From NCBI RefSeq assembly GCF_002300165.1, contig NZ_MLCE01000012.1, positions 248,001 through 312,000 of the forward strand: a stretch of DNA of 64,000 bases, read 5' to 3'. Position numbers and translations under genes: made by a program. Within the stretch, counting starts at the first letter, position 1. The number at the start of each line of letters is the position of its first letter. Source of the DNA: Streptomyces sp. Tue6028. GTDB lineage: Bacteria > Actinomycetota > Actinomycetes > Streptomycetales > Streptomycetaceae. Under the pieces are notes generated by a model that was given only the letters and a program-made list of their open reading frames with translations, made no database searches and was not told where the DNA came from. Shown here piece after piece: positions 40,333 to 55,580 of this stretch.

Positions 40333-40388
40333 CGCACGCCGCACGCCGCACGGCAGACGGCAGACGGCAGACGGCAGACGGCAGACGG
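40333..40388. repeat. Heptanucleotide tandem repeat (CGGCAGA)n
   Basis: Five copies of CGGCAGA at 40351-40385, preceded by CCGCACG-like heptamers (40333-40350). Simple slippage repeat just downstream of the beta-helix gene's stop. Confidence 0.85.
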
Positions 40389-40433
40389 TGATCTAGAGCC
40401 AGCGCGTGATCAGCGGTCGACGGGATGTGGAGG

Positions 40434-41777: not shown

Positions 41778-42848
41778 CTACCTGTCGTCGCCGTCCCGGC
41801 CGTCTCCGAAGACGAAGAGCGGCTTGGCACCACGTGCGGGTGTTTCGGCGAGCGCGATGGCTTCGGTGAAGCGTTCGAGCGGGAACGGGCGGCCCGCGGG
41901 GATGCTCAGCACACCGTCGGCGACGAGCGCGCGGACCTCGGACAGCGCGTCCAGCGCGCCCCCGGGTGAGGCGGTGCCGAACCAGCGGTTCAGCCAGAAG
42001 CCCCGAACTGTTTTCGTCTCGTAGATGACCGAGCGTGCCTGCAGCGGGATCGTCAGCGCCGCCGGGTCGGTCTGCCGATGGGTGGAGAGCGCACCGTAGA
42101 CCACGACTTCTCCTCCCGGAGCCAATGCCTGGGACACCTGGGCACCCACGGGTCCCGCGACACAGTCGACGGCCTTGTGCACGCCGGCCGCTCCCGCGAT
42201 CTCAGCCACACGCTGCGACAGGTCCTCGTCCGCCGTACAGATGACCTCGTCTCCGCCCAGCGCCCTGATCTCCTCGACGGCATCGCGCCGCCGCACGACA
42301 TTGATCGTGGGAATGCCCAGATGCCTGGCCAGCTGGATGACGAGCCGGCCGACGGTGGAGCCCGCGGCCGTCTGCAGCAACCATTCCCCCGGCTGTACGT
42401 CGAGTTCGCGTGTCACCAGGAGCAGCGCGGTCAACGGGTTGACGGCGAGCTGGCAGGCGTCGGAGTCGCTCAGACGACCAGGGACCGGCAGGAGCCTTCG
42501 CACGTCGGCAACAAGGTATTCCTGCCAAGTGCCGGCCACGTGTGGCCCGGGCACCGCCGGGACGGCAGCGTTCACCACACGGTCGCCGATCTTCAGCCCC
42601 TCGGTGTCCGGGCCCAGGGCCTCGACACGGCCGACGCATTCCATATTGCCCCCGACAGCGGGGAATCGAGGGGAGAAACCGTAGCGGCCACGCAGCACGT
42701 GCAGGTCGCTGGCGTGAATCGGGGTCGCCTTCACACGGATCAACGCCTGACCGGCTTCCGGCGTGGGCACCGGCCGGGTTTCCAGCCGCAGAACCTCGGC
42801 CGGCTCGCCGACCTCTCCGGCTACGAGCGCGCGCATGGTGTGCGGCAT
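41778..42848 (-). CDS. Zinc-independent MDR oxidoreductase, enoyl-thioester-reductase-like
   Basis: 356 aa, ATG (MPHTMRALVAG) with GAAAGG six bases upstream. Medium-chain dehydrogenase/reductase: RVKATPIHASDLHVLRGRYG, FPAVGGNMECVGRVEALG, then NAD(P) loop LLQTAAGSTVGRLVIQLARH and LGIPTINVVRRRDAVEEI. The A-G-S-x-V-G and TINVVRRR strings resemble Etr1/MECR 2-enoyl thioester reductases; no structural zinc cluster is seen. Cytosolic NADPH-dependent reduction of an enoyl or quinone substrate is likely. C-terminus ends FVFGDGRDGDDR. Confidence 0.85.
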   Translation of the reverse strand: MPHTMRALVAGEVGEPAEVLRLETRPVPTPEAGQALIRVKATPIHASDLHVLRGRYGFSPRFPAVGGNMECVGRVEALGPDTEGLKIGDRVVNAAVPAVPGPHVAGTWQEYLVADVRRLLPVPGRLSDSDACQLAVNPLTALLLVTRELDVQPGEWLLQTAAGSTVGRLVIQLARHLGIPTINVVRRRDAVEEIRALGGDEVICTADEDLSQRVAEIAGAAGVHKAVDCVAGPVGAQVSQALAPGGEVVVYGALSTHRQTDPAALTIPLQARSVIYETKTVRGFWLNRWFGTASPGGALDALSEVRALVADGVLSIPAGRPFPLERFTEAIALAETPARGAKPLFVFGDGRDGDDR

Positions 42849-43166
42849 GGGCGGCCTTTCGTCTCTCGACGCCCGATGACCCCTGCGCCGCGGCGGGCGA
42901 TCACCTCGACGGGCTGGACCCCGGGCGCATACCCGTGCCAGGTCCACCGCACGCACCGCACCCGGGAGCCTGCACCCGGGAGCCTCTGGAGTCCCGACAT
43001 CACGCTAAGCGCCACCGACTGACTCTGCAATCGGCCGTGAACGGGAACGAGAGCGACCAGGTCACCCGGGCTACGGCGGCAGCTCAGGTCAACGGCTTCT
43101 CGCGCCTCCCCCGCACCGAGCAGGCATGGCTCTCCCCGTCGCTGGACCGAGTCGACTCGGTCGGCG
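42849..43166. other. Intergenic, no gene seen
   Basis: 318 bp between two minus-strand genes. No supported reading frame, and no strong dyad; promoter of the MDR gene is expected within the first 150 bp. Confidence 0.4.
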
Positions 43167-43883
43167 TCACAGTGCGGACTCCTCGATCGGTTCCGTCGGT
43201 GGCACGGCCGGCAGTTGGTCCTCCGGGCCGCAACCCAGCTCCTCGCTGAGCTTCAGGGCCATGGAATGGACCACGGTGACCATGTCCGCGGCCTGCCGGC
43301 GGGCATCGCCGCGGAAAGGCCAGTGGACCGTGAGCGCCATCCGCACCGACTCCCCCTCCATGCCCCGACAGTGAAAGTCGAGCCATGCGCGACGCCCGAA
43401 CGCGCCGTGGGCCCCCGCCCCCGCGACAGCGAAGGTTTCGGTGGTCTCTCCCATACGGAAATACAGGTAGCCGTCCTCCCTCGATTCCTTCGTCATGGGG
43501 TACGGAGCTATGCCGACCTCGACGTCGACGGCCATCCGCAACTCTGCCGGAGCCAGCGGCGGCGGCGTGTACAGAGCGCAGAGGCCGATATCGCTGAGAG
43601 TCCAACTCCTTACACCCTCAGCAACCTTGGCGAGCGAGGCGTGGCGCATCCCCGGGTACTCCCGTATGTGCCTGCGCCCGGTCAGGCGTACCAGAGCTTC
43701 AGCGGCAGGTTCGTTCAACGACGAGTCGCAGAGCCGAGCCCATCCCGGCGGCTTGGGACCTTGCGCGGCGCTCGTCGCCGGCACAGAGCCGGTCATGGCC
43801 AGACTCAGGCTCAGGACAAGGCCGCCGCCCACCGGCACCCGACGGCGCAAGCGGCCGGCGCGGCTCCACGCATCACGGTTCAT
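43167..43883 (-). CDS. Secreted protein of unknown function
   Basis: 238 aa from the second ATG (MNRDAWSRAG), chosen because GGGAGG lies ten bases before it; the first ATG at 43901 is possible. Signal peptide RLRRRVPVGGGLVLSLSLAMTGSV...ATSAAQ. The mature part starts PGWARLCDSSLNEPAAEALVRLTG and is one alpha/beta domain without known motif; residues SEELGCGPEDQLPAVPPTEP form its end. Two Cys pairs may form disulfides. No neighbour suggests a job. Confidence 0.68.
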   Translation of the reverse strand: MNRDAWSRAGRLRRRVPVGGGLVLSLSLAMTGSVPATSAAQGPKPPGWARLCDSSLNEPAAEALVRLTGRRHIREYPGMRHASLAKVAEGVRSWTLSDIGLCALYTPPPLAPAELRMAVDVEVGIAPYPMTKESREDGYLYFRMGETTETFAVAGAGAHGAFGRRAWLDFHCRGMEGESVRMALTVHWPFRGDARRQAADMVTVVHSMALKLSEELGCGPEDQLPAVPPTEPIEESAL

Positions 43884-44057
43884 GGCACGGAACCCTCCCA
43901 TGGCGGTGGCCGTGGATCACCGTCCCCGACGCGTCAGGCGGCGGCCGTGTCATGGATCAGCGCAGCGACTGAACCAACCGAGATTCACCGATGAGTTCCG
44001 CCGGCTGCGCCGGTCTACCAGGACGTACGCCATCGAGCCACCGACTGGAGCCCCACC

Positions 44058-44528
44058 ATGACCAACCCCGCACACCCCGGCCGCATGCTGTTCGTGAACA
44101 TCCCCGTAGCGGACCTCGAGCGCAGCAAGGCGTTCTTCGCCAAGCTCGGGTTCAGCTTCAACCCGAAGTTCACCGACGAGACCGCCACCTGCATGCTGGT
44201 CGGCGAGCACGCCTTCGTCATGCTGCTCACCCGCGAGAAGTTCGCGGAGTTCGCGAAACTGCCGATGGCCGATCCCACCACGCACACGCTGGCGCTGTAC
44301 TGCTTCAGCGTGTCGTCGCGCGACGAAGTCGACGCGGTCAGCGCCGCTGCGCTCGCAGCGGGCGGCACCGAGGTCGACGACGCCGAGGACTACGGCTTCA
44401 TGTACTCACGCAGCTTCTACGACCTCGACGGCCACGGCTGGCAGGTCATGTGGATGGACCCGGCGGCGGCGGAACAGGGCCCCGAGGCGTTCGCGGCCTC
44501 CGCTCAGGACGCCGACGCCCCGGCCTGA
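44058..44528 (+). CDS. VOC-family (glyoxalase/extradiol dioxygenase-like) protein
   Basis: 156 aa, ATG. Strand pattern RMLFVNIPVADLERSKAFFAKLGF, then ATCMLVGEHAFVMLL and FYDLDGHGWQVMWMDP, fits a single-chain VOC dimer. The usual metal residues appear only in part (Glu/His positions are not all conserved), as in the 'PhnB/bleomycin-resistance-like' subgroup seen in many actinobacteria. The function might be antibiotic binding or a small isomerase; unknown. Single gene with GGAG about 9 bases upstream (GACTGGAGCCCCACC). Confidence 0.85.
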   Translation: MTNPAHPGRMLFVNIPVADLERSKAFFAKLGFSFNPKFTDETATCMLVGEHAFVMLLTREKFAEFAKLPMADPTTHTLALYCFSVSSRDEVDAVSAAALAAGGTEVDDAEDYGFMYSRSFYDLDGHGWQVMWMDPAAAEQGPEAFAASAQDADAPA

Positions 44529-44591
44529 CCCACCGCGTTCCGGACCCCCGGGGGGTGTTGCAGCCGTCTGTGACCGGACAGTTCCGGCTCT

Positions 44592-44640
<49 letters not shown>

Positions 44641-44737
44641 ACCGGATGATCAAGCAGCGTGTGCAGCCCAGTCGGCAACGCCCCTCAGCCGGGGCGACTC
44701 GCTCACAACTCCTGACAGCTGACCATCCCGCTACACC

Positions 44738-44800
44738 CTATTGCCGTATTTATATGAGTATTTAAGAGCAATGAGAAATTGATTGGTATTTCATAACAGC
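44738..44800. promoter_or_regulatory. AT-rich promoter-like patch
   Basis: Clearly below 35% GC against a genome near 72%. Contains TATATGAGTATTTAAG and TTGATTGGTATTTCATAAC. Possible foreign or strongly regulated promoter for the small secreted protein at 44914. Confidence 0.5.
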
Positions 44801-44913
44801 CGGTGTTCTGTGGCGATTTGGCCGTGTCGGAGGGCAAGGATCAGGGCGTGCCTGGCCGAACGGTTCGGGCAGTGACGGGGCGCCAGCCCCGGTTCGTACG
44901 GAAAGGTCTGAAC

Positions 44914-45174
44914 ATGATCAACCGGTTGAAGAGGGCTGCGGCCCTGGGGGCGGCGACGGTGGCTCTGGCCACGGGCGCGGTCGTCGGCATGGTCGGCACC
45001 GCGTCGGCCGCGCCGCAGGACCACCGGCCGCCGGCGGCGTCGCACCACTGCCAGGACGAGCGGGGCCAATGGGCGCGCCACTGGCAGCCGGCATTCCGGG
45101 ACCGGCACCACCGCTGGCACCCCGGCCAGTGGACCCGCGTCTGGCGCCCCGTCCACCGCGATTGCCACCGCTGA
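44914..45174 (+). CDS. Small secreted His/Trp-rich protein
   Basis: 86 aa, ATG with GAAAGG eight bases upstream; a longer frame from 44803 lacks a signal. Signal peptide: NRLKRAAALGAATVALATGAVVGMVGTASA. The mature 55 residues are rich in His, Trp, Arg and Gln: HHCQDERGQWARHWQPAF, HPGQWTRVWRPVHRDCHR, with one Cys pair likely forming a disulfide. No known family; similar small exported proteins occur in Streptomyces. Followed by a strong terminator. Possible metal or peptide binding by His clusters is only inference. Confidence 0.75.
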   Translation: MINRLKRAAALGAATVALATGAVVGMVGTASAAPQDHRPPAASHHCQDERGQWARHWQPAFRDRHHRWHPGQWTRVWRPVHRDCHR

Positions 45175-45221
45175 CCCGGTAGCTGACGCCGGCACCGGCC
45201 CGTAGGAGGGGCCGGCGATCC

Positions 45222-45265
45222 GAACCGGCCCCGGCACCCCCGAAAGGGCGCGCCGGGGCCGGTTC
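45222..45265. terminator. Hairpin terminator
   Basis: 14-bp arms GAACCGGCCCCGGC and its complement (45252-45265), 16-base loop. Confidence 0.8.
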
Positions 45266-45607
45266 ATTGCGTCGCACCTGCTCTGTTTGGCCTGTGCGGG
45301 CCGGAAACCACGCCCAGCCGGCCTCCTGCGTTACGTGGAGAAGCGGCTAGTGGTGTGACCACCTAGGTCCGGGTTGGGGTCCCTACAGGTAGCGCCCCGA
45401 CGGTTGCCGCCCAGCTCTGCCGAACCGCGTCCGCCTTCGGCACTTCGGGGCCCGCGGGCCATCTGTACTCATCCATGGACAGAGCATGACTGCACTGGCA
45501 GGCTCCTCGACCGCCGCCTTACAAGCCTGGTGGTCAGGGTCATCGAGGGTGCGCGGGTCATAGCGGCTTTGGAGAGTGGTCAGCTGAGCCGGTCATCGCG
45601 ACCGCGG

Positions 45608-45650
45608 CGACCCGTCGTTGACCGTGGCTGACCGCCCGATGTGGCACGCG
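45608..45650 (+). repeat. Island repeat copy A (degenerate)
   Basis: CGACCCGTCGTTGACCGTGG and onwards to TGTGGCACGCG match parts of repeat copies at 46211-46298 and 48849-48936 (see those). Likely a scar left by an old integration. Confidence 0.6.
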
Positions 45651-45758
45651 CGGGCGCGTGTCGGCACCTGGCCCTCAGGCCTGTGAGGGTGATACCTGAT
45701 CTCTGGTGCGGCTCCGAAGACCTTGCGGCGTCGGCTGGGCAGTGAGAAAGGAGGCGCG

Positions 45759-46148
45759 TTGGTACGGCATCTCACGCCTGTGTTCGCGCTGGGAGCGTTG
45801 CGTCGCGGCAAGGAGATCGAGCAGTTCCTCGGCCCGGTGGAGCGGGGCGGCCGGCGTGGCGTTCGTTGGATCGCGCTCAGCCCTGGCCGTGCTGGCGTCG
45901 GGGTCTACCTGCAGGAGGTGGAGGACATCCCCTCCGACACCTTCCGTGACATCACCGACCAGCTGCCGCTCGATCCGGACGACGAGACATGGGGCAAGAA
46001 GATCACCACCGTGGCGACTCCGGAGGAAGCCATCAGCCTGGCCGAGCGGGAGTTCGGCGCGATCGCTGACCGCTGGGTCAATCTCGGTTTCGTCGGCGAC
46101 GAATACTACGACTACGTGACCTCCGGCCGTCCGGATCACACGGGCTGA
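45759..46148 (+). CDS. Hypothetical accessory protein
   Basis: 129 aa from TTG; AAAGGAGG ends four bases before. Sequence: VRHLTPVFALGALRRGKEIEQFLG, SPGRAGVGVYLQEVEDIPSDTF, WGKKITTVATPEEAISLAEREFGA, then WVNLGFVGDEYYDYVTSGRP. The alternation and acidic C-terminus recall small immunity-type proteins, but no family is recognised. Codon use is a little less GC-biased than neighbours. It lies between repeat copies A and B of the tRNA-Val region, so it is probably cargo. Confidence 0.55.
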   Translation: MVRHLTPVFALGALRRGKEIEQFLGPVERGGRRGVRWIALSPGRAGVGVYLQEVEDIPSDTFRDITDQLPLDPDDETWGKKITTVATPEEAISLAEREFGAIADRWVNLGFVGDEYYDYVTSGRPDHTG

Positions 46149-46149
46149 C

Positions 46150-46298
46150 ACGTGCCTTGTAAGGGTGGGGTACGGGGTGGCCCTGGCGCCCAGGTCAAAC
46201 GGGCTCTGTCTACAACCCAGGTCAACGGCGCATCTCGACTGCGATGAACCGTTGTTGACCGTGCCTGACCGCTCGACGCGGCACGGCTGTGGCACGCG
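46150..46298 (+). repeat. Island repeat copy B with weak tRNA-Val att scar
   Basis: GTGCCTTGTAAGGGTGGGG at 46152-46170 resembles the anticodon-stem part of the tRNA-Val gene. It is followed at 46211-46298 by a sequence matching copy C (48849-48936), with GCATCTCGACTGCGA and GTGGCACGCG conserved. The order tRNA-piece then repeat is the same in both. Seen as an older, more decayed att junction. Confidence 0.65.
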
Positions 46299-46327
46299 CC
46301 GCCACCCTGGACACACGACTGACCGAC

Positions 46328-46600
46328 TTACCAGTCACGCCACCGTTCGGTCAGTCCTCCCATGCCCTGGCGGATGAGTAGCCCCGAGACGTCAACGCCT
46401 TGCTCGGTGAGGACGTCATCGATGTACTCGCAGAGGTCCTCGCGCTCGATGGTGCAGTACGCCCCATATTCCTTATCAATGACGTTCAGCTGCCGCACGA
46501 CGCGCTCGACGGCGGCTAGTACGGGCTCGTCGGATGCGCTGCCGAGAACATGCGCCTCTTGTTCAAACGCGGCCAGCGCGACCTCGGTGGCCTGCAGCAT
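46328..46600 (-). CDS. Small acidic hypothetical protein
   Basis: 90 aa, ATG, no clear ribosome site (nearest GGAG is 18 bases up). Sequence LQATEVALAAFEQEAHVLG, DEPVLAAVERVVRQLNVIDKE, TIEREDLCEYIDDVLTEQGVD, ending GLTERWRDW. The length, acidity and location in a mobile region fit an immunity-like or antitoxin-like protein, but nothing specific is recognised. Cytosolic. Confidence 0.5.
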   Translation of the reverse strand: MLQATEVALAAFEQEAHVLGSASDEPVLAAVERVVRQLNVIDKEYGAYCTIEREDLCEYIDDVLTEQGVDVSGLLIRQGMGGLTERWRDW

Positions 46601-47002
46601 CCCCGGGGCGTAGAGCTCCGTGGAATCGGCGTTTCGCGCGGCCTCGTCGCGCCAAGTCGTGGACGGTCTGATTGCCCTGCGCGGAGGCTACATCTGGCCT
46701 CCGACAGCGCAGCGCACGCCCTCCAGGCCCGCTGGTCCTCGCCGGCGGCTTGGGACTACCCGCCTCGCCCGTACGGTGGCCCTCTCCTGCCGAATACTGG
46801 TGTTCCCCGTGACTGCCCGCCTGATCCGAGACGTACGTGTTTCCGGTGTGATCGGGCTCCACATTGCGTGATGCTGTAACATGCCACTTTTGGCGTAATA
46901 GAGGGTTATTGACTGTTTAAGCCGTCATGCTGTGCCTATTGATCAAGGCTCGTCGAGAGGATCCGGCGGGCCCCTCCACAATGTGGCTGGGATGGCGAAT
47001 AC
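46601..47002. other. Intergenic, no gene seen
   Basis: 402 bp. Lower GC than average from 46860 to 46950, with TTGACT (about 46908) as a possible -35 for the following DUF1259 gene, but no good -10. Open frames here lack coding signs. Confidence 0.4.
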
Positions 47003-48100
47003 ATGGCTACTGAAGCGAGGCCGGTACCGGCCGGAACAGGTGCAGGGACATCACGACGCCGCGTCCTGACCACGGCTGCGCTGGGATCGGCATTCGCGGC
47101 ACTGCCGGGACGGGCTGTCGGTGCCGAGCCGGGCGCCTCGCGCGAAGGGGCGCACGGCGGCCCGGATCACAACTGCGGCGGTGAGCGCGCAGGCGCTGAC
47201 GGCAGGGCCAGCCGGGATGCCGGCGCGTTGGTGCGTCCGGCCGAGAGCACGGCGAAGGACTGGGCTCACGTTGCGGCGGAACTGGGCCGCGAGGGAAGCA
47301 TGCTGGGCAGGCTGATCTACCGGACAGCTTTCCCCCGCACCGACCTGCGTGTCGTCTCCCACGGCGTCACTGTGTCGCCGGAACTCGCCGTCGGCTCGCA
47401 CGTGTCCTTCATCCGCTATGCCGACAACACCATCCTGAGCATGGGAGAACTGGCCGTCGCCGAGACGGAGCTGCACCGTGTGACCGGCGCACTGCAGTCA
47501 CACGGCATCGAGCAGACGGCTATTCACAACCACCTGCTCGCTCACACTCCCCGTATCGTGTGGATCCATACGCACGGGCACGGTCCGGATGCCCTGACCC
47601 TGGCCCGCGGCCTGCGCGCCGCGTTCGACTGCACAGGCACGCCGCCCGCCAAGTCCTCGACGACTTCTACTCCTGCAAAGAAGCTGAAGCTGGACACAGC
47701 GGGCATCGACGCCGCCCTGGGCACCGCAGGTACCGTCTATGGCAACGTCTACAAGTCCGTCTTCCGGCGCCGCGAGACGATCACCGACGGCAGCTACGTC
47801 CTGCCGATTGGTTCCGGGGCGACCACGGCCCTCAGCTTCCAGCCGGTCGGGGGAGGCTGTGCCGCGGTCAGCGGGGATTTCGCCGTGCTGGCCGGGGAGG
47901 CGCAGGACGTGCTGGCCGCGCTCCAGCGCGGCGGAATCGAGATCGTCGAGTTGCACAACCATGGCCTGGTCGACACGCCCCGCATGTTCTTCATCCACGT
48001 CTGGGCCGTTGGCAACGCCGTGAAGATTGCGCGGGCCCTGCGCCGTGCGGTGGCCGCCACCAACGCCACACCCGCCGGTGGGGCAGAAGGGGGCGAGTAG
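47003..48100 (+). CDS. Tat-exported DUF1259 protein (two repeats)
   Basis: 365 aa. The N-terminus carries a twin-arginine signal: SRRRVLTTAALGSAFAAL. Two DUF1259 (LppY/LpqO) domains in tandem: HGVTVSPELAVGSHVSFIRY, TAIHNHLLAHTPRIVWIHTHGHG; and later FQPVGGGCAAVSGDFAVLAG, IVELHNHGLVDTPRMFFIHVWA. Each repeat has the H-N-H-x-L plus P-R-(I/M) signature. Family function is unknown; it is exported or periplasmic. Codon use is slightly less GC-biased than core genes, fitting cargo status in the tRNA-Val region. Confidence 0.85.
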   Translation: MATEARPVPAGTGAGTSRRRVLTTAALGSAFAALPGRAVGAEPGASREGAHGGPDHNCGGERAGADGRASRDAGALVRPAESTAKDWAHVAAELGREGSMLGRLIYRTAFPRTDLRVVSHGVTVSPELAVGSHVSFIRYADNTILSMGELAVAETELHRVTGALQSHGIEQTAIHNHLLAHTPRIVWIHTHGHGPDALTLARGLRAAFDCTGTPPAKSSTTSTPAKKLKLDTAGIDAALGTAGTVYGNVYKSVFRRRETITDGSYVLPIGSGATTALSFQPVGGGCAAVSGDFAVLAGEAQDVLAALQRGGIEIVELHNHGLVDTPRMFFIHVWAVGNAVKIARALRRAVAATNATPAGGAEGGE

Positions 48101-48200
48101 CGGTTGGCCGAAAGCCCACGTACATCCACTACGAGGACTTCCGGCCGACACGCCGAGAGCACGCAACGGACCCCGCCGACACGAAACACCCCCGCCGGCC

Positions 48201-48236
48201 ACCTCAGTTCCCCGTGGTTCCCCGCCGGATCTGGCA
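48201..48236 (+). repeat. Repeat F, copy 1
   Basis: 36 bp starting ACCTCAGTTCCCCGTG and ending ATCTGGCA; a second copy at 52383-52418 differs by only a few bases. It precedes a GCTGTAC motif in both places. Confidence 0.75.
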
Positions 48237-48340
48237 CGGGGAACTTCTGATCCGTAGCTCTGTGTGGATCGGTCATCGACGGTCATTCCGGCTGCGAATC
48301 GGCCCCTTGCGGGTGCCATCGCGCGGGAAGGATCGCTGAG

Positions 48341-48363
48341 GTTGCTGTACTTCCCAGCTGTAC
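48341..48363 (+). promoter_or_regulatory. GCTGTAC-N6-GCTGTAC motif, copy 1 of 3
   Basis: GTTGCTGTACTTCCCAGCTG then TAC: two direct GCTGTAC half-sites with a 6-base spacer (13-bp period). Identical architecture at 50683 and 52550. Possibly operator sites of one regulator of the island. Confidence 0.65.
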
Positions 48364-48367
48364 CGCC

Positions 48368-48688
48368 ATGGAGACCTTGTCAGCCGCCTGTCGGATGCAG
48401 GACCGTACGGCCATGCCCGAGGCCTCTGAGCCCCGTAACGTCTATCGCTCGTTCACCCGGGTCGCCGGGAACGCGGGCCTGCGGGTCATCCGGCTGCACG
48501 ACGCCCGGCACGGCTGCGCGACCCTGCTCACCGCGGCCGGCGTGGCTCCCCGCGTCGTGATGGAGACCCTCGGGCACAGCCAGATCGCCGTGACCATGAA
48601 CGTCTACGCCCACGTCGTCCAGGGCACCCAGCGCGAGGCCGTCAGCCACATGGACCGGCTGCTCACGCGGCGCCTGCAGCGCGAGTAG
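48368..48688 (+). pseudogene. Tyrosine recombinase (integrase) C-terminal remnant 1
   Basis: About 106 residues are open. The catalytic end survives: VIRLHDARHGCATLL (HxxR-type box), VAPRVVMETLGHSQIAVTMN (GHS) and the Tyr in VYAHV. The N-terminal arm-binding domain and the first catalytic Arg region are missing, so this is a fragment. The remains resemble pSAM2-like integrases of actinobacterial integrative elements. A terminator and a tRNA-Val att copy follow at once, the same order as at remnant 2 (54784-55413). Confidence 0.85.
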
Positions 48689-48717
48689 TCCTGGCACTGA
48701 TGTCAGATCTGGATGCC

Positions 48718-48751
48718 AAAGGCCCCCAGCCATGATCGGCTGGGGGCCTTT
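48718..48751. terminator. Hairpin terminator between integrase remnant 1 and att copy
   Basis: AAAGGCCCCCAGCC and its complement (48738-48751) with loop ATGATC; T-rich on the plus strand end (CCTTT). Confidence 0.88.
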
Positions 48752-48754
48752 GTC

Positions 48755-48805
48755 CTGGTGGGCGCGGACGGTTTCGAACCGCCGGCATCCGCCTTGTAAG
48801 GGCGG
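48755..48805 (+). repeat. attL-like 51-bp copy of tRNA-Val 3' half
   Basis: 51 bp identical, except one base, to 55505-55555 within the intact tRNA-Val gene. It covers CCA/acceptor, T-arm and anticodon stem-loop (CCGCCTTGTAAGGGCGG) but not the D-arm. Typical boundary of an integrative element at a tRNA 3' end. Confidence 0.9.
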
Positions 48806-48848
48806 ACGTGGTCGTCGGCATAGTTCCCCAGGTCGCATCGGCTGTAGC

Positions 48849-48936
48849 GACGACCCAGATGAACCGTGCATCTCGACTGCGACGAGCCGTCGTTGACCGT
48901 GGCTGACCGCACGATGTGGCACGGCTGTGGCACGCG
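48849..48936 (+). repeat. Island repeat copy C
   Basis: 88 bp, starting CGACCCAGATGAACC and ending ACGGCTGTGGCACGCG; matches copy B (46211-46298) in most positions and copy A in part. In copies B and C it follows a tRNA-Val fragment by about 45 bp. Confidence 0.75.
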
Positions 48937-49098
48937 ACCGCTTCGCCATGAAGCAAATGCAGGCGGGCTTGCCGCTACGGGCTGGATTCACGTGAGAGAG
49001 TCGGGCATCCGCGTCATTGCTCGCGCTGGCCTCACCCGGTAAAGTGTCGATCTTCGGTCGGCGGAAGCCGTACGGAGTTCTCGAAGGCCGGGCACATC

Positions 49099-49866
49099 AT
49101 GCATCTCGCCGACCACCCCGCGCGCCGCCGCCTCAATACCGCGCTGGACAATCTCGCCGTCACGTTCCGCGATGCGACCGCGCATTCGGACGAGCACAAC
49201 TGCGAGTGCCACTGGGGAAGCGCGGAAGAACTCTCCCTTCTGAAGGCGCCGAACGTGGAGCTGGAGCCGGATCTTCTGCGCCGGACCTGGCAGGCCTGGG
49301 GCTGGACCGATCACGCAGCCGTGCTGCGCCGCATACTGCCGCAGTTCGCCACAGCACTGGTCGCCGGTTACGCGGAGCCCCTGTTCGGCCTGGAAGAGGC
49401 CGGGTATTGCTTCGCCCTCGGCCGCTGGCAGCAGTGGCCCGACGATCAAGCCGGTCCGGTACGCGAGTTCTTGCATGCCTGGTGGGTGCAGAGCCTCACC
49501 GACCCGGATGCGATCGTCCCAGCGCATGAGGTCTTCGCGATGTGCGCCGAGGCTTCCGGAACGCTCGGGCCCTGGCTCGCCGAATGGGAGGAGCAGACCG
49601 GTCACCTCAGCGACCGCCGTCTCGCCGAGGCGGCGGCGGAATGGGAGTACAAGCTCCTGGGAGACAGCCTGCCGTGGCGGGTGAGCTGGTACGAGCATGA
49701 CGAAGAGGAGATGCGCGCCGACCTGGTCACGTGGCTCCTCGGACACGCCGCGGCACGGCTCCGCGAGTCGGGCGCTTCGACGGATCTGCAGCACCGGATA
49801 CGGCTGCTCGGTCTCACCGAGCTGGACCGCTGGACCGATCCGCACTGGCCCGGTCACAGCTACTGA
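49099..49866 (+). CDS. Hypothetical accessory protein with HxxCxCH motif
   Basis: 255 aa, ATG with GAAGG. All-helical appearance: RRLNTALDNLAVTFRDATA, then HSDEHNCECHWGSAEEL (HNCECH could bind metal), PDLLRRTWQAWGWTDHAAVL, LPQFATALVAGYAEPLFG, WYEHDEEEMRADLVTWLLGH and LTELDRWTDPHWPGHSY. No family is recognised, but similar unknown proteins of about 250 residues occur in Streptomyces. First cargo gene to the right of attL and repeat C. Function unknown. Confidence 0.7.
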   Translation: MHLADHPARRRLNTALDNLAVTFRDATAHSDEHNCECHWGSAEELSLLKAPNVELEPDLLRRTWQAWGWTDHAAVLRRILPQFATALVAGYAEPLFGLEEAGYCFALGRWQQWPDDQAGPVREFLHAWWVQSLTDPDAIVPAHEVFAMCAEASGTLGPWLAEWEEQTGHLSDRRLAEAAAEWEYKLLGDSLPWRVSWYEHDEEEMRADLVTWLLGHAAARLRESGASTDLQHRIRLLGLTELDRWTDPHWPGHSY

Positions 49867-49919
49867 CAACCAACCGACGCGACCACTTCGCCGCGAAGCG
49901 TCGGTCGTAGGGATCCGAT

Positions 49920-50050
49920 CAGTAGCCGAAGAAGTGCAGGGCCGGGTCTCCAACCTGCACCCCTGCAACCGATCAACGCTGCTACCTGCGACTTAGCCGT
50001 CGACGGTTGTCAGCGTTGGTCGTCGTCGAGCACCCTCGGACGGCCCAGGG
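49920..50050 (+). repeat. Repeat D (pairs with repeat E)
   Basis: 131 bp starting CAGTAGCCGAAGAAGTGCAG and ending CGGCCCAGGG; 52634-52764 is a direct copy of equal length with most positions conserved. In both, GATCAACGCTGC and CGACTTAGC lie in the middle. Confidence 0.8.
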
Positions 50051-50157
50051 ACGGCCCGGCGGGTGCTCAACACGATGGCGGATGAAGCGCCTCGACGCCA
50101 GAGCCCCACTGAGAGATTTACATCGCTCCGGTGCGCTTGCTGCACGCCGCGTCAGGG

Positions 50158-50712
50158 CTAGCAGAACTGCGGCGGACCGATGACGGTCTGGCCCACTTGC
50201 TCGGCCAGCCAGGACGCGTGGCGCTCCTCGTATCCGTCGCCGTTTCTGCGGCGGACGTGCACGAGGACAGTGTGCCCGTCGATACGCTCGTCCAGGTCGC
50301 GTGTGGCGGCGTTGAACAGCACGGATACCTCGGCGTGCTTGAAGTCCGCGTACAGGCCGGCTTCCGGAACCTTCGGCCATTCCAGAAGGTCCCAGTGGAT
50401 CTCTGCCACATGCCGAGCTGCCGCAGCCGTGAACCTGTCCTCGATACTTCTTCCCACCGGCTGAGCGTCCACCGATGCCCAGAGCGGAAGATGCGCCGAC
50501 AGGAAAGCGGGATCGGTGGAGAGCTCGGGCGCGTGGATTGTGCCGCGCAGAGGCATTGGGGCGTTTGGATCACGGTCCCAGTCCTCAAAGTCCTCCCTCC
50601 TGAACCCGGCATCAGGCAGAGCCTTCCTGGCGCGGAGTACGGACGTTGCGAGGATCACCAATGGTCGATGCCGGTCGTCACGGTTGCTGTACTTCTCTGC
50701 TGTACGGCTCAC
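50158..50712 (-). CDS. Hypothetical accessory protein
   Basis: 184 aa from GTG at 50712 (VSRTAEKYSNRDDRH); later GTG at 50658 is possible. It begins 38 bases after the lipoprotein stop, so both probably share a transcript. Sequence: LVILATSVLRARKALPDAG, FLSAHLPLWASVDAQPVG, DFKHAEVSVLFNAATRDLDE, HTVLVHVRRRNGDGYEERHASWLAEQVGQTVIG (split). No family recognised; cytosolic. The GCTGTAC motif copy 2 lies inside its first codons, which suggests either an operator inside the gene or a later true start. Confidence 0.55.
   Translation of the reverse strand: MSRTAEKYSNRDDRHRPLVILATSVLRARKALPDAGFRREDFEDWDRDPNAPMPLRGTIHAPELSTDPAFLSAHLPLWASVDAQPVGRSIEDRFTAAAARHVAEIHWDLLEWPKVPEAGLYADFKHAEVSVLFNAATRDLDERIDGHTVLVHVRRRNGDGYEERHASWLAEQVGQTVIGPPQFC
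50683..50705 (+). promoter_or_regulatory. GCTGTAC-N6-GCTGTAC motif, copy 2 of 3
   Basis: GTTGCTGTACTTCTCTGCTG then TAC; lies near the 5' end of the minus-strand hypothetical gene. Confidence 0.6.
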
Positions 50713-50749
50713 AGTTCGGCCGCGGCTGGACAGGCCCAGAATCGTCAGA

Positions 50750-51427
50750 TCAGTACTGAGGCAGCGTTGCCGTGACTTTCTTCCCGGCCTGGACCTGTGC
50801 GATCCGCTGGGCGAACATCGTTGCACCCTGTGTCAGCATCGGTTCGCTCTCACCGCCCTCCACGAAGGTGGTGGCGACCACCGTACCGACGCGCATGGTG
50901 ATGTACTCGCCCGTCAACCCTCCGCCTTCCTTGGTGTAGGCCTGGCTCTCATTCCCGAAGGTGGGCTTCGACAGAGTCGGATTGTCACCGACCTCGACCT
51001 TCAGCCCGTCCTTGGCGTCCTGCCTGCTGGTGTAGGTGGTGATCTCGAAATTGACGTAGTACGTATCGCCAGACAAAGCGAACTTGTCGTGGCCGTACCA
51101 CTTGCCTTTGCACTCCTGCGGACTCGGACAATCGAGGTGCCCGTCCGCGGTGTTGACGTCACCACTCACGCCCTCAAGGCCACCCACTGCCCCGAGGTCC
51201 GGAAGCGCGTTCTTGACCTGGTCCTTCTGACTCAACACGGCATCGGAATCTGGTACGGCGGACGACCGCTCCGGCGCGGGGCTGCTGGTCGCACCGGCAC
51301 GCCCGCCACCTTGCCCAGAGTCGTCGACATCCCCGCCGCTGCATGCCGTAAGAGCGGCGCACAGCACACTGGCCACGACGGCCGCCGACAGCGTGAGACG
51401 TCGCGTCGTCTGGTTCGGTCCTGTCAC
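50750..51427 (-). CDS. Accessory lipoprotein of unknown function
   Basis: 225 aa from GTG (MTGPNQTTRRLTLSA). Lipobox LTAC with downstream SGG: signal ASVLCAALTAC; the Cys would be lipidated and the protein held outside the membrane. A Gly/Ser/Pro linker is followed by a domain with ECKGKWYGHDKFALSG, NFEITTYTSRQDAKDGLKVEV and a repeated 'T-x-G' C-terminus (QGATMFAQRIAQVQAGKKVTA). Several Streptomyces lipoproteins look alike; function unknown. First gene of a two-gene unit. Confidence 0.8.
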   Translation of the reverse strand: MTGPNQTTRRLTLSAAVVASVLCAALTACSGGDVDDSGQGGGRAGATSSPAPERSSAVPDSDAVLSQKDQVKNALPDLGAVGGLEGVSGDVNTADGHLDCPSPQECKGKWYGHDKFALSGDTYYVNFEITTYTSRQDAKDGLKVEVGDNPTLSKPTFGNESQAYTKEGGGLTGEYITMRVGTVVATTFVEGGESEPMLTQGATMFAQRIAQVQAGKKVTATLPQY

Positions 51428-51789
51428 GGCCAGTCTCCCCTGTAGCGATCAACTCGTTGGGAAGATCATAGAGTTAGGGCGGATCTAGATCATTAGACGT
51501 TGCGACGCGCACCGTATCGCGCGGTTGACAGAACGGCTTTGGCCGGGAGTCTGAATGACCCAGTCAAGTGGGTCACCGGAAGGTCAATGCCCTAGTTTGG
51601 AAGATCGCGTATCCGGATGCGGCGTGACCTGGTGAGACGCTGACCTCGGCGTTCCCGGGTCATGAGCCGACGTTCCCCGTTGGTTCCCGCCCGTTGCCGT
51701 TCGATCGGGCATGCAGGGGGCACGTGTGGGTTTCTCCGGCCCTTGCGAGCTGGGAGCTCCAACGGGGACCTAACGAGCCTAGTCGGCGG
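51428..51789. other. Intergenic, no gene supported
   Basis: 362 bp upstream of the lipoprotein and downstream of the small membrane gene. AT-rich at 51455-51500 (GGCGGATCTAGATCATTAG). Expected promoter of the lipoprotein unit. An 82-codon open frame at 51662 lacks support. Confidence 0.4.
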
Positions 51790-51990
51790 TCACCCAGCCG
51801 CCTGGGATCGCCTCGCTGACGCCACGCTCACCGCCGAGCCGGAGGCCATGGCCGCTGACATCGCGATCAAGTTGGTCAGAACGCCCTGGAGCTGTGCGTG
51901 CGGGACGTAGATGACCACGATGACGACGAGTACGACGACCCAGTCTCGCGGGTCAGCGATTGACAGCCTGTTGCTTGGGGTCACACTCAT
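51790..51990 (-). CDS. Small single-pass membrane protein
   Basis: 66 aa, ATG with AGGAGGT seven bases upstream. One helix: PRDWVVVLVVIVVIYVPHA, followed by LQGVLTNLIAMSAAMASGSAVSVASA. No family recognised. The good ribosome site distinguishes it from surrounding noise frames. Confidence 0.6.
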   Translation of the reverse strand: MSVTPSNRLSIADPRDWVVVLVVIVVIYVPHAQLQGVLTNLIAMSAAMASGSAVSVASARRSQAAG

Positions 51991-52382
51991 AGCAGTACCT
52001 CCTAGTAGGTGCTGGCCCACCTATTGCTGCTCTCGCCGGGAAGCCTGCGCGGCAATGGGTGGGCGTTTGCGTTATGCCACTGTGGGCTGAGTATTGGCCG
52101 AGCGCAACGTACGGTAAGCGTGACCTAACCAACGGCTATGGAGCACGGGGGGCGCACGGGTGCACGGTTGTGCGAGGTGGGCGGTTCCGCGAGCGTGTTC
52201 CGACGAGGTCGGCGGAGTCTCAATGCCCCAGTCAGGCGCCGCTGCCCAAGTCCTGCCGAGCCGGCACGCGAAGTGCACGGGGCTTGTCGCTGACCACCGC
52301 TTTAGGAGCGAGGTGGGGTGAGAGTAGGCGTGACCTGCGGATTCTCCGGCCTGATTGGATCCCGGTGGAAGTACCCGACTGA

Positions 52383-52418
52383 ACCTCAGTTCCCCGTGAG
52401 TCCCCGCCCGATCTGGCA
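52383..52418 (+). repeat. Repeat F, copy 2
   Basis: 36 bp, ACCTCAGTTCCCCGTGAG to ATCTGGCA; see copy 1 at 48201. Confidence 0.75.
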
Positions 52419-52549
52419 TGACAGTGGCACGGCCCCGGCGACTGTGCCACGGCCCCTCGATGCGAACTATGGGCGTGGCGGTCGCCGAGGTCTCCTGGGC
52501 TGGTACGGCGGACGGCTCGGGGCGCCGACGGTTGGCATCGGTCGGTGAG

Positions 52550-52572
52550 GTTGCTGTACTTCGCTGCTGTAC
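52550..52572 (+). promoter_or_regulatory. GCTGTAC-N6-GCTGTAC motif, copy 3 of 3
   Basis: GTTGCTGTACTTCGCTGCTG then TAC. Confidence 0.62.
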
Positions 52573-52633
52573 TGCGACGGTCCAGGGGCGCTGGCCGAGC
52601 AGCCTAGGGGTGGACCTTGGGCAGCGGCTCCCT

Positions 52634-52764
52634 CAGTAGCCGAAGAAGTGAAGGGCCGGGTTTCTGGCCTGCGGCCGCGTAATCGATCAACGCTGCGACC
52701 TGCGACTTAGCTGTCGGTGGTTGTCAGCGTTGGACGTCGTTGAGCACCCTCCGACGGCCCAGGG
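52634..52764 (+). repeat. Repeat E (copy of repeat D)
   Basis: 131 bp matching 49920-50050: begins CAGTAGCCGAAGAAGTGAAG, ends ACGGCCCAGGG. Confidence 0.8.
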
Positions 52765-52869
52765 TAGGTCTCAGCGTGCCCGACGGGTCGGCACAGTCCC
52801 TGCGCCTCTCCCGGCTGCGCTCGCGCGGGAGCGCCCCGCGGCGCGTGGCTGCGGGGCGCTTTGTGGGGT

Positions 52870-53082
52870 TCAGTCGATGGTGTAGCCGTCGTACGTACCG
52901 CCCCAGCATTTGACGGTGTTGTGCAGATAGGGCTCTCCGCCGCCCTCCCTGCACTTAGCAGCGGTGGTGTAGTTGAAGTGAGGGCTGGGTGTGTCGGCGG
53001 TGGCTGTGGCGGCGCCTGTGAGGCCGAGCCCGGCGAGGGCTGCCGTGGCGATGACGGCGGCGAGGATTCGTCGACTGCGCAT
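52870..53082 (-). CDS. Small secreted protein
   Basis: 70 aa, ATG with GAAAGGGG eight bases upstream. Signal peptide RSRRILAAVIATAALAGLGLTGAATATA; mature 40 residues: DTPSPHFNYTTAAKCREGGG, CWGGTYDGYTID, with one Cys pair. No family recognised; similar tiny exported proteins are seen in Streptomyces islands and cores. Function unknown. Confidence 0.7.
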   Translation of the reverse strand: MRSRRILAAVIATAALAGLGLTGAATATADTPSPHFNYTTAAKCREGGGEPYLHNTVKCWGGTYDGYTID

Positions 53083-53686
53083 TGGGTTCCCCTTTCACGG
53101 ATTGCCTCGGTTGGGCCACTAGCCAGCTTGATCCTCGCCCAAGTGGGTGGCACGTCACGTTGCGCCATTCGGGTGACGACGCTGGCGGCGGGGTCGGTAA
53201 CGCGACCCGTCGGACAGGCCCTGGATGTATTGACCTGAAGCGTTGCTCACGCGGTCGGCGTAGCGGCTTTGGGGTGGCGCTGCTTTGGCGCGAGTGATCA
53301 TGGCCCCGTAAGCTTCCGGCGCGTCGGGCAGTCTGTGGACCGGCACTGGTCCTGCCCGCGTTAGTGCCCGATGGGCCCCCTGTTCTTCGTGGCTCGCGCC
53401 GAAGTGGCTCCGTAAAGCCGTGGAGCCGACCGCCTCAGCCACGACGTGTTCTGACCTCATGCCCTGTGTGCCTGCCTCTTGGGCGGGAGCGGGCGGCCGG
53501 CGGTGCCGAGTGGGGCGGAGACATGAGCGCGGGCGCCGCCCGCCGCCCGCTCCCGCCCGGAGGAGCGAAGCGACGACGGGTGCTTGATGTAGTAGGGAAA
53601 GTTTGGCCGCATGGCGCCCTTGTACAGGGGCATCGTCGGCTGCTGCCATGAGTGCTGGGGCAAAGGTGCACTTGGGGGCGGAGCCG
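53083..53686. other. Intergenic, strong hairpin, no gene
   Basis: 604 bp before the NERD gene. Contains a 23-bp-arm inverted repeat (53481-53558, listed separately). Open frames are overlapping and lack coding signs; a distinctive AT-richer string GATGTAGTAGGGAAAGTTTGG (53587) could be promoter DNA. Confidence 0.45.
53481..53558. repeat. Inverted repeat, 23-bp arms
   Basis: GGGCGGGAGCGGGCGGCCGG then CGG (53481-53503) pairs with 53536-53558 with one mismatch; 32-base loop. May act as terminator or as a structured DNA site near the NERD gene. Confidence 0.75.
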
Positions 53687-54652
53687 ATGTCAGACCTCAC
53701 GGTGAATCCGTGGAAGCGGCACGGCAAGGACAGGCTCTACGTGAACCTGCCGGACGGCACGCCCGTTGCGTGGGCGGACCGGGGTTCCAAGGTCATCACC
53801 GTCAAGGTTGCTGAGCATCGGCATGAGGCTGTTGCCTTACTCCGCCAACAGCTTGGTGATCCGGTGACAGTGCGCACCGATCGCCCGGCCTCATCGCCCC
53901 CTCGTCGGCCTCGGCCGGCCGAGCCGCCTCAGCAGTCGTCACCCCCGGCGAAGCCCCGACGTGATCGACGCCCTTTGTCGCTGCCCGAACTCACCGTTGC
54001 CGATGATCTGGCGAAGAACCCTCCCGGTGCAGCAATTCTCAGCGACATGGCCGTCCGTGGACCGTCGGTTGTCGCGCGGGCTTGGTCCAAGCTGTTGAAG
54101 CGCCCCTCGGGCTGGGAGTCGTGGCTCGATGGCCTTGAAGGGGAAAAGAGGGTGGGCCGTGAGCTGGAACGTCTCACCGCTCATGGCTGGCGAGTCCTGC
54201 ACGGCATCCCCAAGGCCAATGGCGGGGACATCGATCACCTGCTGATCGGTCCCGGCGGGGTGTTCGTCTTCAACACGAAGCGGCACCCTGGCGCTTCGGT
54301 CTGGGTCGGTGACGAGGTAGCCAAGGTCAACGGTTCCCCGCACCCGTACCCTGCGGTGAGCAAGGCCGAAGCCGCCTATGTGCGACGGGTGTTGGAACGC
54401 TACGCCGGCTTCACACCTGATGTAGTGCCCGTCCTCGCCTTCGTCGATGTCGCCTCGGTGGTCCGCGCACCGACGCAGAACACCGTGCGGACCTACCAGG
54501 AACGAGAGGTCTCCGCTCTGGCGCCGGTGACCGGCCGGCTCACGCGCGAACAGGTCGAGTCGCTGTTCGCCGTGGCCCGGCACAGACGCGCCTGGCTCCG
54601 CACGGACCCGTCTTCGGTACCTCGTCAGGCCTCGGGTGCTGGGGAGACGTAA
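53687..54652 (+). CDS. NERD-domain (nuclease-related) protein
   Basis: 321 aa from the ATG giving MSDLTVNPWKRHGKDRLYVN; two upstream ATG codons are possible but this one gives the usual start of such proteins. N-terminal 60 residues form a small domain, then a Pro/Arg-rich linker and a NERD domain at about 148-260: LEGEKRVGRELERL, GDIDHLLIGPGGVFVFNTKR (residues 180-199, acidic and Lys catalytic-like positions). NERD folds resemble PD-(D/E)XK nucleases and occur in mobile and defence-related loci. The GDIDH...NTK triad is intact. Cytosolic. Ends 28 bp into the convergent GNAT remnant. Confidence 0.85.
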   Translation: MSDLTVNPWKRHGKDRLYVNLPDGTPVAWADRGSKVITVKVAEHRHEAVALLRQQLGDPVTVRTDRPASSPPRRPRPAEPPQQSSPPAKPRRDRRPLSLPELTVADDLAKNPPGAAILSDMAVRGPSVVARAWSKLLKRPSGWESWLDGLEGEKRVGRELERLTAHGWRVLHGIPKANGGDIDHLLIGPGGVFVFNTKRHPGASVWVGDEVAKVNGSPHPYPAVSKAEAAYVRRVLERYAGFTPDVVPVLAFVDVASVVRAPTQNTVRTYQEREVSALAPVTGRLTREQVESLFAVARHRRAWLRTDPSSVPRQASGAGET

Positions 54653-54775
54653 CAGACAGCGTCGATCTCCTGTCCCTCTCCTAACGCGTGCCTTGCCGTG
54701 CCGAGGCGCTGCATCCCCCACCGTTCGTAGAGCCGGATGGCTGCCTTGTCCTTGGTCATCACGTCGAGAACGACC
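54625..54775 (-). pseudogene. GNAT acetyltransferase C-terminal remnant
   Basis: The only open part reads VVLDVMTKDKAAIRLYERWG, then MQRLGTARHALGEGQEI and YVSPAPEA-stop, a classic GNAT end. The upstream half is replaced by the integrase remnant starting near 54784, so the gene is truncated by recombination. It overlaps the NERD gene end by 28 bp. Confidence 0.75.
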
Positions 54776-54783
54776 CCCACCCA

Positions 54784-55413
54784 CACCGAGCGGCCTTTCC
54801 TCTCCGTGCCCGAGGTGTACCGGCTCGCCGACGCGGTCCCGCCGCACTGCCGCGGCTTGGTGCTCCTGGCCGCGTTCGCCGCGCTCCGCTTCGGTGAGCT
54901 GGCCGCGCTCCAGCGCCGGGACATCGACCTGGAGGCCCGTACCGTCTCCGTCCGCCGCTCGTACTCCGAGACCCGGACGGACGGCCTCAAGGTCAAAGCG
55001 CCCAAGAGAGCGCTGCGGGTGTGCGCACCGTGGCGTTCCCGGCCTCGCTCGTGCCCGAGCCGGCGCACCACCTGGCCGAGCACGCGGAGGCCGGCCGCAC
55101 CGGGCTCGTCTTCGCCGGGGCCCGCAGTGGAGTCCTGCGGCGGAACAACTTCCGGCGGATCTGGCTCCGCGCTCTCACCACGACCGGTCTCGGTGACGTC
55201 CACTTCCACGACCTCCGGCACACCGGCAACACCCTCGCCGCGACCGGCGGCGCCACCACCCGTGAGCTGATGCACCGCATGGGCCACTCGTCGGTGCGGG
55301 CCGCGCTGGTCTATCAGCACCTCGTCAACGGGCGCGATCACCAGATCGCCGACTACGTGGACGGTCAGATCAAGAAGGTGAAGCGGCCTCCGCGCGGCCC
55401 ATCTGGCACGTAA
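54784..55413 (+). pseudogene. Tyrosine recombinase (integrase) remnant 2, frameshifted
   Basis: The N-terminal part is missing; homology starts at about RPFLSVPEVYRLADAV. First frame contains the Arg box AAFAALRFGELAALQRRDID and SVRRSYSETRTDGLKVKAPK. A frameshift at about 55005-55010 (AGAGAG; removal of one AG restores KSAAGVRTVAFPASLVPEP) moves the reading frame, after which VHFHDLRHTGNTLAATGG (HxxR), MHRMGHSSVRAALVYQH (GHxS and Tyr) follow. So the catalytic domain is complete but broken. It lies directly before a terminator and tRNA-Val, as an integrase next to its att site should. Confidence 0.87.
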
Positions 55414-55447
55414 GTGGCACGACGGCTCCGAGCGGCCGAGAATGATC

Positions 55448-55489
55448 AAGGCCCAGGCTCACGGACTCCCACCCGCGGACCTGGGCCTT
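55448..55489. terminator. Hairpin terminator upstream of attR/tRNA
   Basis: AAGGCCCAGG (55448-55457) and CCTGGGCCTT (55480-55489), 22-base loop, followed by TCTCG. Serves the integrase remnant on plus and the tRNA on minus. Confidence 0.75.
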
Positions 55490-55504
55490 TCTCGTGTCCT
55501 GGAA

Positions 55505-55555
55505 CTGGTGGGCGCGGACGGTTTCGAACCGCCGACATCCGCCTTGTAAGGGCGG
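55505..55555 (+). repeat. attR: 51-bp att core within tRNA-Val
   Basis: Same 51 bp as 48755-48805 with one mismatch. It covers CCA, acceptor 3' strand, T-arm, variable loop and anticodon stem-loop. Confidence 0.9.
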
Positions 55556-55580
55556 CGCTCTACCGCTGAGCTACGCGCCC
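55506..55580 (-). tRNA. tRNA-Val (anticodon UAC)
   Basis: 75 bases on minus including encoded CCA. Acceptor GGGCGCG (55580-55574) pairs with CGCGCCC; D-arm GCTC/GAGC; anticodon stem CCGCC/GGCGG with loop CTTACAA, giving anticodon TAC (valine codons GUA); T-arm GGCGG/CCGTC with loop TTCGAAA. Intact, and the anchor of the accessory region. Confidence 0.95.

What the first reader, a model, noticed from the sequence alone, without database searches (positions are those of the whole stretch)
45600..55580. Serial tandem integrations at one tRNA-Val gene, each with decayed integrase and matching terminator
A 51-bp copy of the tRNA-Val 3' half lies at 48755-48805, one mismatch from the intact gene (55505-55555). 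Each copy is preceded in the same order by a tyrosine recombinase remnant and a hairpin terminator. The two integrase remnants belong to different subfamilies. A more decayed tRNA-like string (46152-46170) is followed by the same 88-bp repeat that follows the 48.8-kb copy, and a third partial repeat lies at 45608. The simplest history is two to three integrative elements inserted one after the other, the newest next to the tRNA, all now crippled.
Basis: partly seen in the sequence, partly recalled or inferred. Interest (0 to 1): 0.72.

Follow-up and report, generated by a model that had tools for sequence, protein, structure and literature searches.

The report
Decayed integration array holding gene cassette
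A 15-kb stretch beside one tRNA gene in what is evidently a Streptomyces genome is a pile-up of broken integrating elements, a known kind of locus, but one 638-base slice of it is a one-gene unit that also sits, cut at the same bases, in another species between different neighbours, as if single genes were being shuffled like integron cassettes.

Summary
A 51-bp copy of the tRNA-Val(UAC) 3' half lies at 48755-48805 (50/51); it and the tRNA each follow a truncated tyrosine-integrase remnant (two subfamilies, about 30% identical), arm sites and a hairpin, and two decayed repeats lie at 46.15 and 45.51 kb. Serial insertion (AICE accretion, already described in Streptomyces) is right in outline, but details change. 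Relatives with an empty site show an island of about 15.3 kb (40.2-55.5 kb), not 10 kb. It holds at least four left-end junctions, one of tRNA-Arg type at 52.30 kb. Three of the four lack the tRNA 3' half: they keep only an anticodon stem-loop core plus integrase arm sites, after an unrelated left flank. The interval 45516-46153 is a one-gene unit, 93% identical to one in Streptomyces aureus; similarity stops at the 7-bp overlap on both sides and the neighbours differ. In selected loci of 32 genomes, 15 of 15 site pairs (8 lineages) with a shared left body have unrelated right bodies. The new part is this cassette-like reassortment of small units, probably by AICE integrases in trans (inferred). 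Against: only 18 of 38 neighbouring site pairs have matching overlaps.

The parts
39783..40194 (+). conserved chromosomal gene (3' part) that abuts tRNA-Val in relatives with an empty site; left flank of the island
   Evidence: within 120 bp of the tRNA in 8 of 18 relatives; stop position read by eye
40195..45507 (.). left part of the island (zinc-type dehydrogenase 41781-42956 -, glyoxalase/Ble-like 44058-44528 +, others); no clear att site found, a weak partial arm match at 43032-43101
   Evidence: segment 41741-42887 also at the same locus in G040 (88%)
45508..45662 (+). site S1: minimal Val-type core (GCCTTACAAG, decayed overlap) plus TGG-type arm region
45723..46148 (+). 141-aa ORF, cargo of the 638-bp unit 45516-46153; its stop codon is 5 bp before the next core
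   Evidence: no Pfam or NCBIfam match at E 0.01
46146..46300 (+). site S2: minimal Val-type core plus TGG-type arm region
46328..46600 (-). 90-aa ORF next to S2; a longer relative follows a TGG arm in G212 (L185)
   Evidence: similarity seen by eye only
47003..48100 (+). DUF1259-family protein (365 aa)
   Evidence: PF07485
48368..48688 (+). int2: C-terminal remnant of a tyrosine integrase
   Evidence: 85-97% to pieces in relatives; full-length relative in G021
48696..48719 (+). int2-side arm sites (GATGTCAG-type direct repeat)
48718..48753 (+). hairpin, probable terminator, before the core
   Evidence: by eye
48755..48805 (+). copy of the tRNA-Val 3' half (att core), 50/51
48788..48948 (+). 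site S3: crossover and TGG-type arm region; arm type matches int1 at the tRNA end
49099..49866 (+). 255-aa ORF, cargo, no family match
52295..52435 (+). site S4: minimal tRNA-Arg-type core (CGCTTTAGGAG) plus B-type arm region, inside the 48.8-55.5 kb segment
   Evidence: (84.2 bits; the profile includes this site)
53603..54652 (+). NERD-domain protein, cargo (start uncertain)
   Evidence: PF08378
54773..55410 (+). int1: N-terminally truncated, frameshifted integrase remnant
55404..55421 (+). int1-side arm sites (TGGCACG direct repeat)
   Evidence: by eye
55449..55492 (+). hairpin, probable terminator, before the tRNA-side core
   Evidence: by eye
55506..55580 (-). intact tRNA-Val(UAC), integration target

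Best explanation
The island is a decayed accretion array at tRNA-Val(UAC), built by site-specific recombination at the anticodon-loop crossover by pSAM2/AICE-type tyrosine integrases. Shown: four left-end scars of two arm families (TGG, B) and two tRNA specificities (Val, Arg) stand in one direction, with integrase ends of the TGG and of a third (GATG) family; both integrase genes here are broken; other species carry different arrays at the same spot. Shown by comparison: several homologous blocks in different species end at the crossover. Inferred: besides whole AICEs, short non-autonomous units (one small gene, arm sites at the left end, a minimal core at the right end, no integrase, no tRNA 3' half) were inserted and exchanged by integrases supplied in trans, which is why the ORF at 45723-46148 sits between different neighbours in two species. 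Deletions then removed most integrase ends.
For: Empty and filled sites in relatives. Two or more core copies (the tRNA included) in 10 of 246 genus genomes. Arm types pair with integrases: the int1 3' end carries TGGCACG repeats as TGG-type left ends do, the int2 3' end GATGTCAG repeats as GATG-type left ends do (by eye). Of 96 sites in 32 genomes, 62 lack the tRNA 3' half by a motif test (loci taken because they had hits, not a random sample). Unit 45516-46153 against G095 (L111): 93.1% over 650 bp, block from 0 of the first crossover to +9 of the second, left neighbours unrelated, right neighbour TGG-type here and GATG-type there. Of 15 cross-genome site pairs with homologous left bodies (8 lineages; 6 pairs come from one group of four loci), 15 have right bodies without a BLAST match at 1e-5, and 5 have a different arm type. 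Of 12 junctions that I picked for a closer look, 10 blocks end within -7..+9 of the crossover. A full-length int1 relative (93%) plus RepSA stands beside the same tRNA in G208.
Against: Of 38 neighbouring site pairs no more than 2.5 kb apart (27, 11 new), 18 have the same overlap type and 20 differ, so many intervals could not circularise as one unit and are mosaics or deletion products. Only one interval (45516-46153) is shared with both ends exact and a different arm type at its right end; two others are exact at the left end but have the same arm type at the right. Two of the 12 junctions do not end at the crossover. The 12 were chosen after seeing block ends. No circle or movement was observed. 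How a site with arms on one side only would be recombined is unexplained.
Confidence: 0.6

Rival explanations
1. Plain AICE accretion and decay: whole elements inserted one after another at the tRNA and then lost their right ends by random deletion; the minimal cores are what was left.
For: AICE accretion at tRNA-Arg, AICE decay and a tRNA-Val AICE with 46-nt repeats are published (PMC9513070, passages); core copies in relatives and on contig C10 here also share 46 nt with the window's copy. Tandem AICEs with integrases of different subfamilies are published (PMC3218068, passages). Broken integrases here. Overlaps of neighbouring sites often differ.
Against: 62 of 96 sites have no tRNA 3' half yet keep a core half-site in the same register, and blocks shared between species switch neighbours at the crossover with a different, non-homologous arm type. 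Random deletion does not predict this.
Confidence: 0.27
2. Secondary-site insertion: elements used non-tRNA targets that resemble the core, so left flanks are simply target DNA.
For: Left flanks are diverse; in 8 of 11 stretches fetched around off-locus sites (9-20 kb each) no tRNA gene was found; only a short half-site is conserved.
Against: The same left flanks recur in different species directly before the core and before different arm types, so the flank travels as a unit ending in the core. I saw no right end made of a full core plus target DNA, but did not search for one systematically.
Confidence: 0.1
3. Exchange by homologous recombination between arm regions, not by integrases.
For: Arm regions of one type are alike (roughly 70-90%) and could serve as homology.
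Against: In 5 of 15 left-homologous pairs the arm types differ; four of these five blocks end at +2..+9 of the crossover, the fifth 16-25 bp before it.
Confidence: 0.03

Closest known systems
AICE accretion at tRNA genes in Streptomyces (PMC9513070, PMC3218068; passages)
   Same: serial insertion at one tRNA, direct repeats of the tRNA 3' half (46 nt at tRNA-Val there), integrases of different subfamilies, decay; a RepSA gene and a full-length int1 relative at the same tRNA in G208
   Different: single-gene units without integrase, rep, tra or tRNA 3' half, bounded by a minimal core; several tRNA specificities mixed in one array
CIMEs and tandem accretion of ICEs/IMEs (Pavlovic et al. 2004 as cited in PMC5704250; ssrA islands of Dehalococcoides, PMC3146451; passages)
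   Same: non-autonomous units in tandem that keep recombination sites and could be moved by a neighbour's integrase
   Different: here the shared units are 0.4-0.8 kb with one gene, and keep arms on one side and a bare core on the other
Integron gene cassettes (recalled)
   Same: one-gene units, exchange at a site next to the gene, tyrosine recombinase
   Different: integrase of AICE type (integron-integrase models far below cut-off), genes in either orientation, no attC-like element found or tested, sites resemble tRNA anticodon loops
pdif modules (Acinetobacter, XerCD)
   Same: small modules exchanged at short recombinase sites, recombinase not encoded by the module
   Different: recombinase, host and site sequence differ; recalled, and seen in a search listing only

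Membership tests
AICE (actinomycete integrative and conjugative element) | intact integrase gene | tested here: not met
   int1 and int2 are truncated; int1 also frameshifted
AICE (actinomycete integrative and conjugative element) | replication initiator (RepSA or other) and TraB-type translocase | tested here: inconclusive
   none among the window ORFs scanned by Pfam (10 proteins, 3); not every ORF of the island was scanned
AICE accretion site | successive elements flanked by repeats of one tRNA 3' end, with different content in different strains or species | tested here: met
   only remnants here, so 'AICE' rests on the integrase family
CIME | no integration or transfer genes but both attL and attR kept | tested here: inconclusive
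   the 638-bp unit has a core at both ends but no integrase-side arms; mobility not testable here
integron | IntI-family integrase | tested here: not met
   the int1 relative of G208 scores 31.4 bits against a cut-off of 265 for the integron integrase model TIGR02249
integron | attC sites folding as single strands | not tested
   no fold was computed; Rfam at gathering threshold finds only the tRNA in 40-56 kb

The most novel reading that the evidence does not exclude
Streptomyces species share a pool of integron-like one-gene cassettes. Each carries AICE-type integrase arm sites and a short core matching a tRNA anticodon stem-loop, circularises and reinserts with integrases supplied by AICEs, and lines up into arrays at tRNA genes and elsewhere. 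The 638-bp unit at 45516-46153 is one such cassette.
Probability: 0.42. Interest if true: 0.8.

Novelty: new variant of a known kind. Interest (0 to 1): 0.56.

Why it matters
AICE accretion is known, but the mobile unit is thought of as a whole element or its remnant. If units as short as 432-765 bp with one gene and no recombinase move at AICE sites, actinomycetes have a gene-capture route comparable to integrons, which could explain patchy small genes (DUF7660, DUF6959, GIY-YIG and unknown families) in their islands. The claim is testable: sites are defined to the base, full-length integrase relatives are identified, and strain collections exist.

Tried and rejected
Arm types were first assigned to the wrong integrases (note); the repeats at the 3' ends of int1 and int2 corrected this. 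Reading every interval between sites as an excisable cassette was dropped because overlaps of neighbouring sites differ in 20 of 38. An 'empty against filled' reading for L088/L189 and L116/L181 was dropped because the right-hand arm region is similar among TGG sites in general. A script fault: after the alignments were stored, the window variable pointed to an alignment row, so the window's own sites were missing there; one search found this and one search repeated the pair analysis; one search stopped with an error after printing the comparisons cited. Rows dropped before counts: L092, L122, L123, L147 (duplicates) and L093 (no hits); L142 (same site as in L185); sites whose model match began after position 9 or scored under 25 bits. 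Searches of plasmids and phages with an int1 relative gave only matches under 60% identity (137 and 605 records). The weak matches were not inspected. Ageing the elements by att divergence was not done: sites belong to different lineages. Papers: PMC9513070, PMC3218068, PMC3146451 and PMC5704250 were seen as passages; the others as listings. That cassette exchange at AICE sites is not in print rests on searches of an open library only.

Full report
What is there. The window's tRNA-Val(UAC) lies at 55506-55580 on the minus strand. A 51-bp copy of its 3' half lies at 48755-48805 with one mismatch, and two weaker repeats lie at 45514 and 46151 in register with the sequence after the 48.8-kb copy. 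Before each full core stands the C-terminal part of a tyrosine integrase, then arm-like direct repeats, then a hairpin. int1 (54773-55410) lacks its N-terminal part and is frameshifted; int2 (48368-48688) is a C-terminal piece.

How wide it is. The right flank (tRNA and 1.8 kb beyond) has a match at E <= 0.001 in 150 of 150 genus genomes, many of them partial. The DNA just left of the finding (43.0-45.5 kb) gave its best matches elsewhere: in G024, G040, G063, G101, G107, G013 and G146 they lie on other contigs or more than a megabase from the right-flank match. In 18 relatives fetched around the tRNA, the gene at window 39783-40177 ends within 120 bp of the tRNA in 8, 0.6-1.0 kb in 4, 1.7-14 kb in 5, and had no match in the stretch of 1. 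The island therefore runs from about 40.2 to 55.5 kb. The two nearest relatives, G040 and G024, have arrays of their own with 3 and 4 core copies at this place, the tRNA included; G024 has a fifth copy on another contig. In 246 genus genomes, 124 have at least one match to the core pattern and 10 have two or more. A genome without a match may have a variant tRNA; I did not check these.

Which end belongs to which integrase. Three kinds of arm region follow the cores. The TGG kind (TTGACCG and TGGCACG repeats) matches the TGGCACG repeat at the 3' end of int1 (55404-55421). The GATG kind matches the GATGTCAG repeat at the 3' end of int2 (48696-48719). A B kind goes with tRNA-Arg and tRNA-Gly type cores. 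So 48755 (TGG) and 55505 (int1) are matching ends. int2 has no GATG end to its left in the window; instead two TGG ends stand at 46.15 and 45.51 kb, whose int1 ends are gone. A tRNA-Arg-type site with B arms lies at 52298 inside the 'newest' segment. At least four left ends are present, besides the tRNA-side right end.

Minimal cores. The sites at 45516, 46154 and 52298 have no tRNA 3' half on their left. The same holds, by a motif test, for 62 of 96 sites from 32 genomes; these loci were taken because a search hit them, so the share is not an estimate for the genus. A sequence-only covariance model of the TGG site finds at least one match at E <= 1e-3 in 151 of 392 genus genomes; the weak matches were not inspected. 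In the own genome a second array, on contig C10, ends about 3 kb from a tRNA-Arg(CCU) gene (C10:107672-107745); it holds two Arg-type cores with a tRNA 3' half and a Val core with an int1 end.

The cassette. The interval 45516-46153 holds one 141-aa ORF. Left neighbours are unrelated; the right neighbour has TGG arms here and GATG arms there. Homologues of the ORF are in 22 of 295 genus genomes; of the 25 loci given, two (this one and G095) are in Val-type units and four lie next to Gly-type cores with B arms. Other units: a 432-bp one with a DUF6959 gene in G208 and G370, and a 752-765-bp one with a GIY-YIG gene in G041 and G212 (families from one copy of each); both are exact at the left end, and at the right end both copies have TGG arms and diverge after them. 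A DUF7660 gene stands before three different right neighbours.

Test. Of 15 cross-genome pairs of sites without tRNA half whose left bodies are homologous over at least 100 bp, 15 have right bodies without a BLAST match at 1e-5; 5 have a different arm type directly after the crossover, from 4 independent left bodies. The 15 pairs come from 8 lineages; 6 are one group of four loci. Of 9 pairs with homologous right bodies over at least 200 bp, 7 have unrelated left sides; the 2 others both have a full tRNA core. Of 12 junctions looked at closely, chosen after seeing block ends, 10 end within -7..+9 of the crossover; the 2 exceptions are DUF7660 comparisons with an Arg-type overlap. Against: of 38 neighbouring site pairs within 2.5 kb, only 18 have the same overlap type (27, 11 new), so the arrays are mosaics, and only one unit has both ends exact with a changed arm type.

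Mechanism. A full-length relative of int1 (93%) lies about 0.1 kb from the same tRNA in G208, with a RepSA gene (NF041486, 868 bits) behind it, so the integrase family is of pSAM2/AICE type. A full-length int2 relative is in G021. I infer that such integrases, in trans, inserted and exchanged short units that keep a core and arms. Nothing here shows movement.

Known or new. Accretion of AICEs at tRNA genes, their decay, and a 46-nt repeat at tRNA-Val are published (PMC9513070, passages); tandem AICEs with integrases of different subfamilies too (PMC3218068, passages). The finding as first read is thus a new member of a known kind. The one-gene units bounded by minimal cores are a variant that I did not find described in searches; the library holds open papers only.

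Noticed in passing
window 40480-41100: Tandem array of imperfect repeats (about 80-bp period, 72-80% alike) at the left edge of the island.
   Followed up: no
window 49919-50050 and 52633-52764: 132-bp direct repeat, 86%, with partial relatives in L005, L066 and L067; contains TTGTCAGCGTTGG and may be the arm region of a further element family.
   Followed up: partly
window 48338, 50680, 52547: Repeated motif GGTTGCTGTACTTCnCTGCTGTAC (direct repeat of GCTGTAC), seen also in several relatives' arrays; role unknown.
   Followed up: partly
L067 9698, L182 6218, L079 15223: GATG-type arm regions after a core reading CCTTATCAGG or close to it, perhaps a tRNA-Ile(GAU) anticodon-loop specificity (recalled); weak scores, 20-34 bits.
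   Followed up: no
tRNA-Val of relatives: The anticodon stem of this tRNA varies in the genus (for instance CCTGC/GCAGG against CCGCC/GGCGG); all 10 genomes with two or more core copies have a stem ending in GCC.
   Followed up: partly
window 54625-54775: The truncated start of int1 abuts a fragment that reads like the C-terminal part of a GNAT acetyltransferase on the minus strand (by eye, family name recalled).
   Followed up: no
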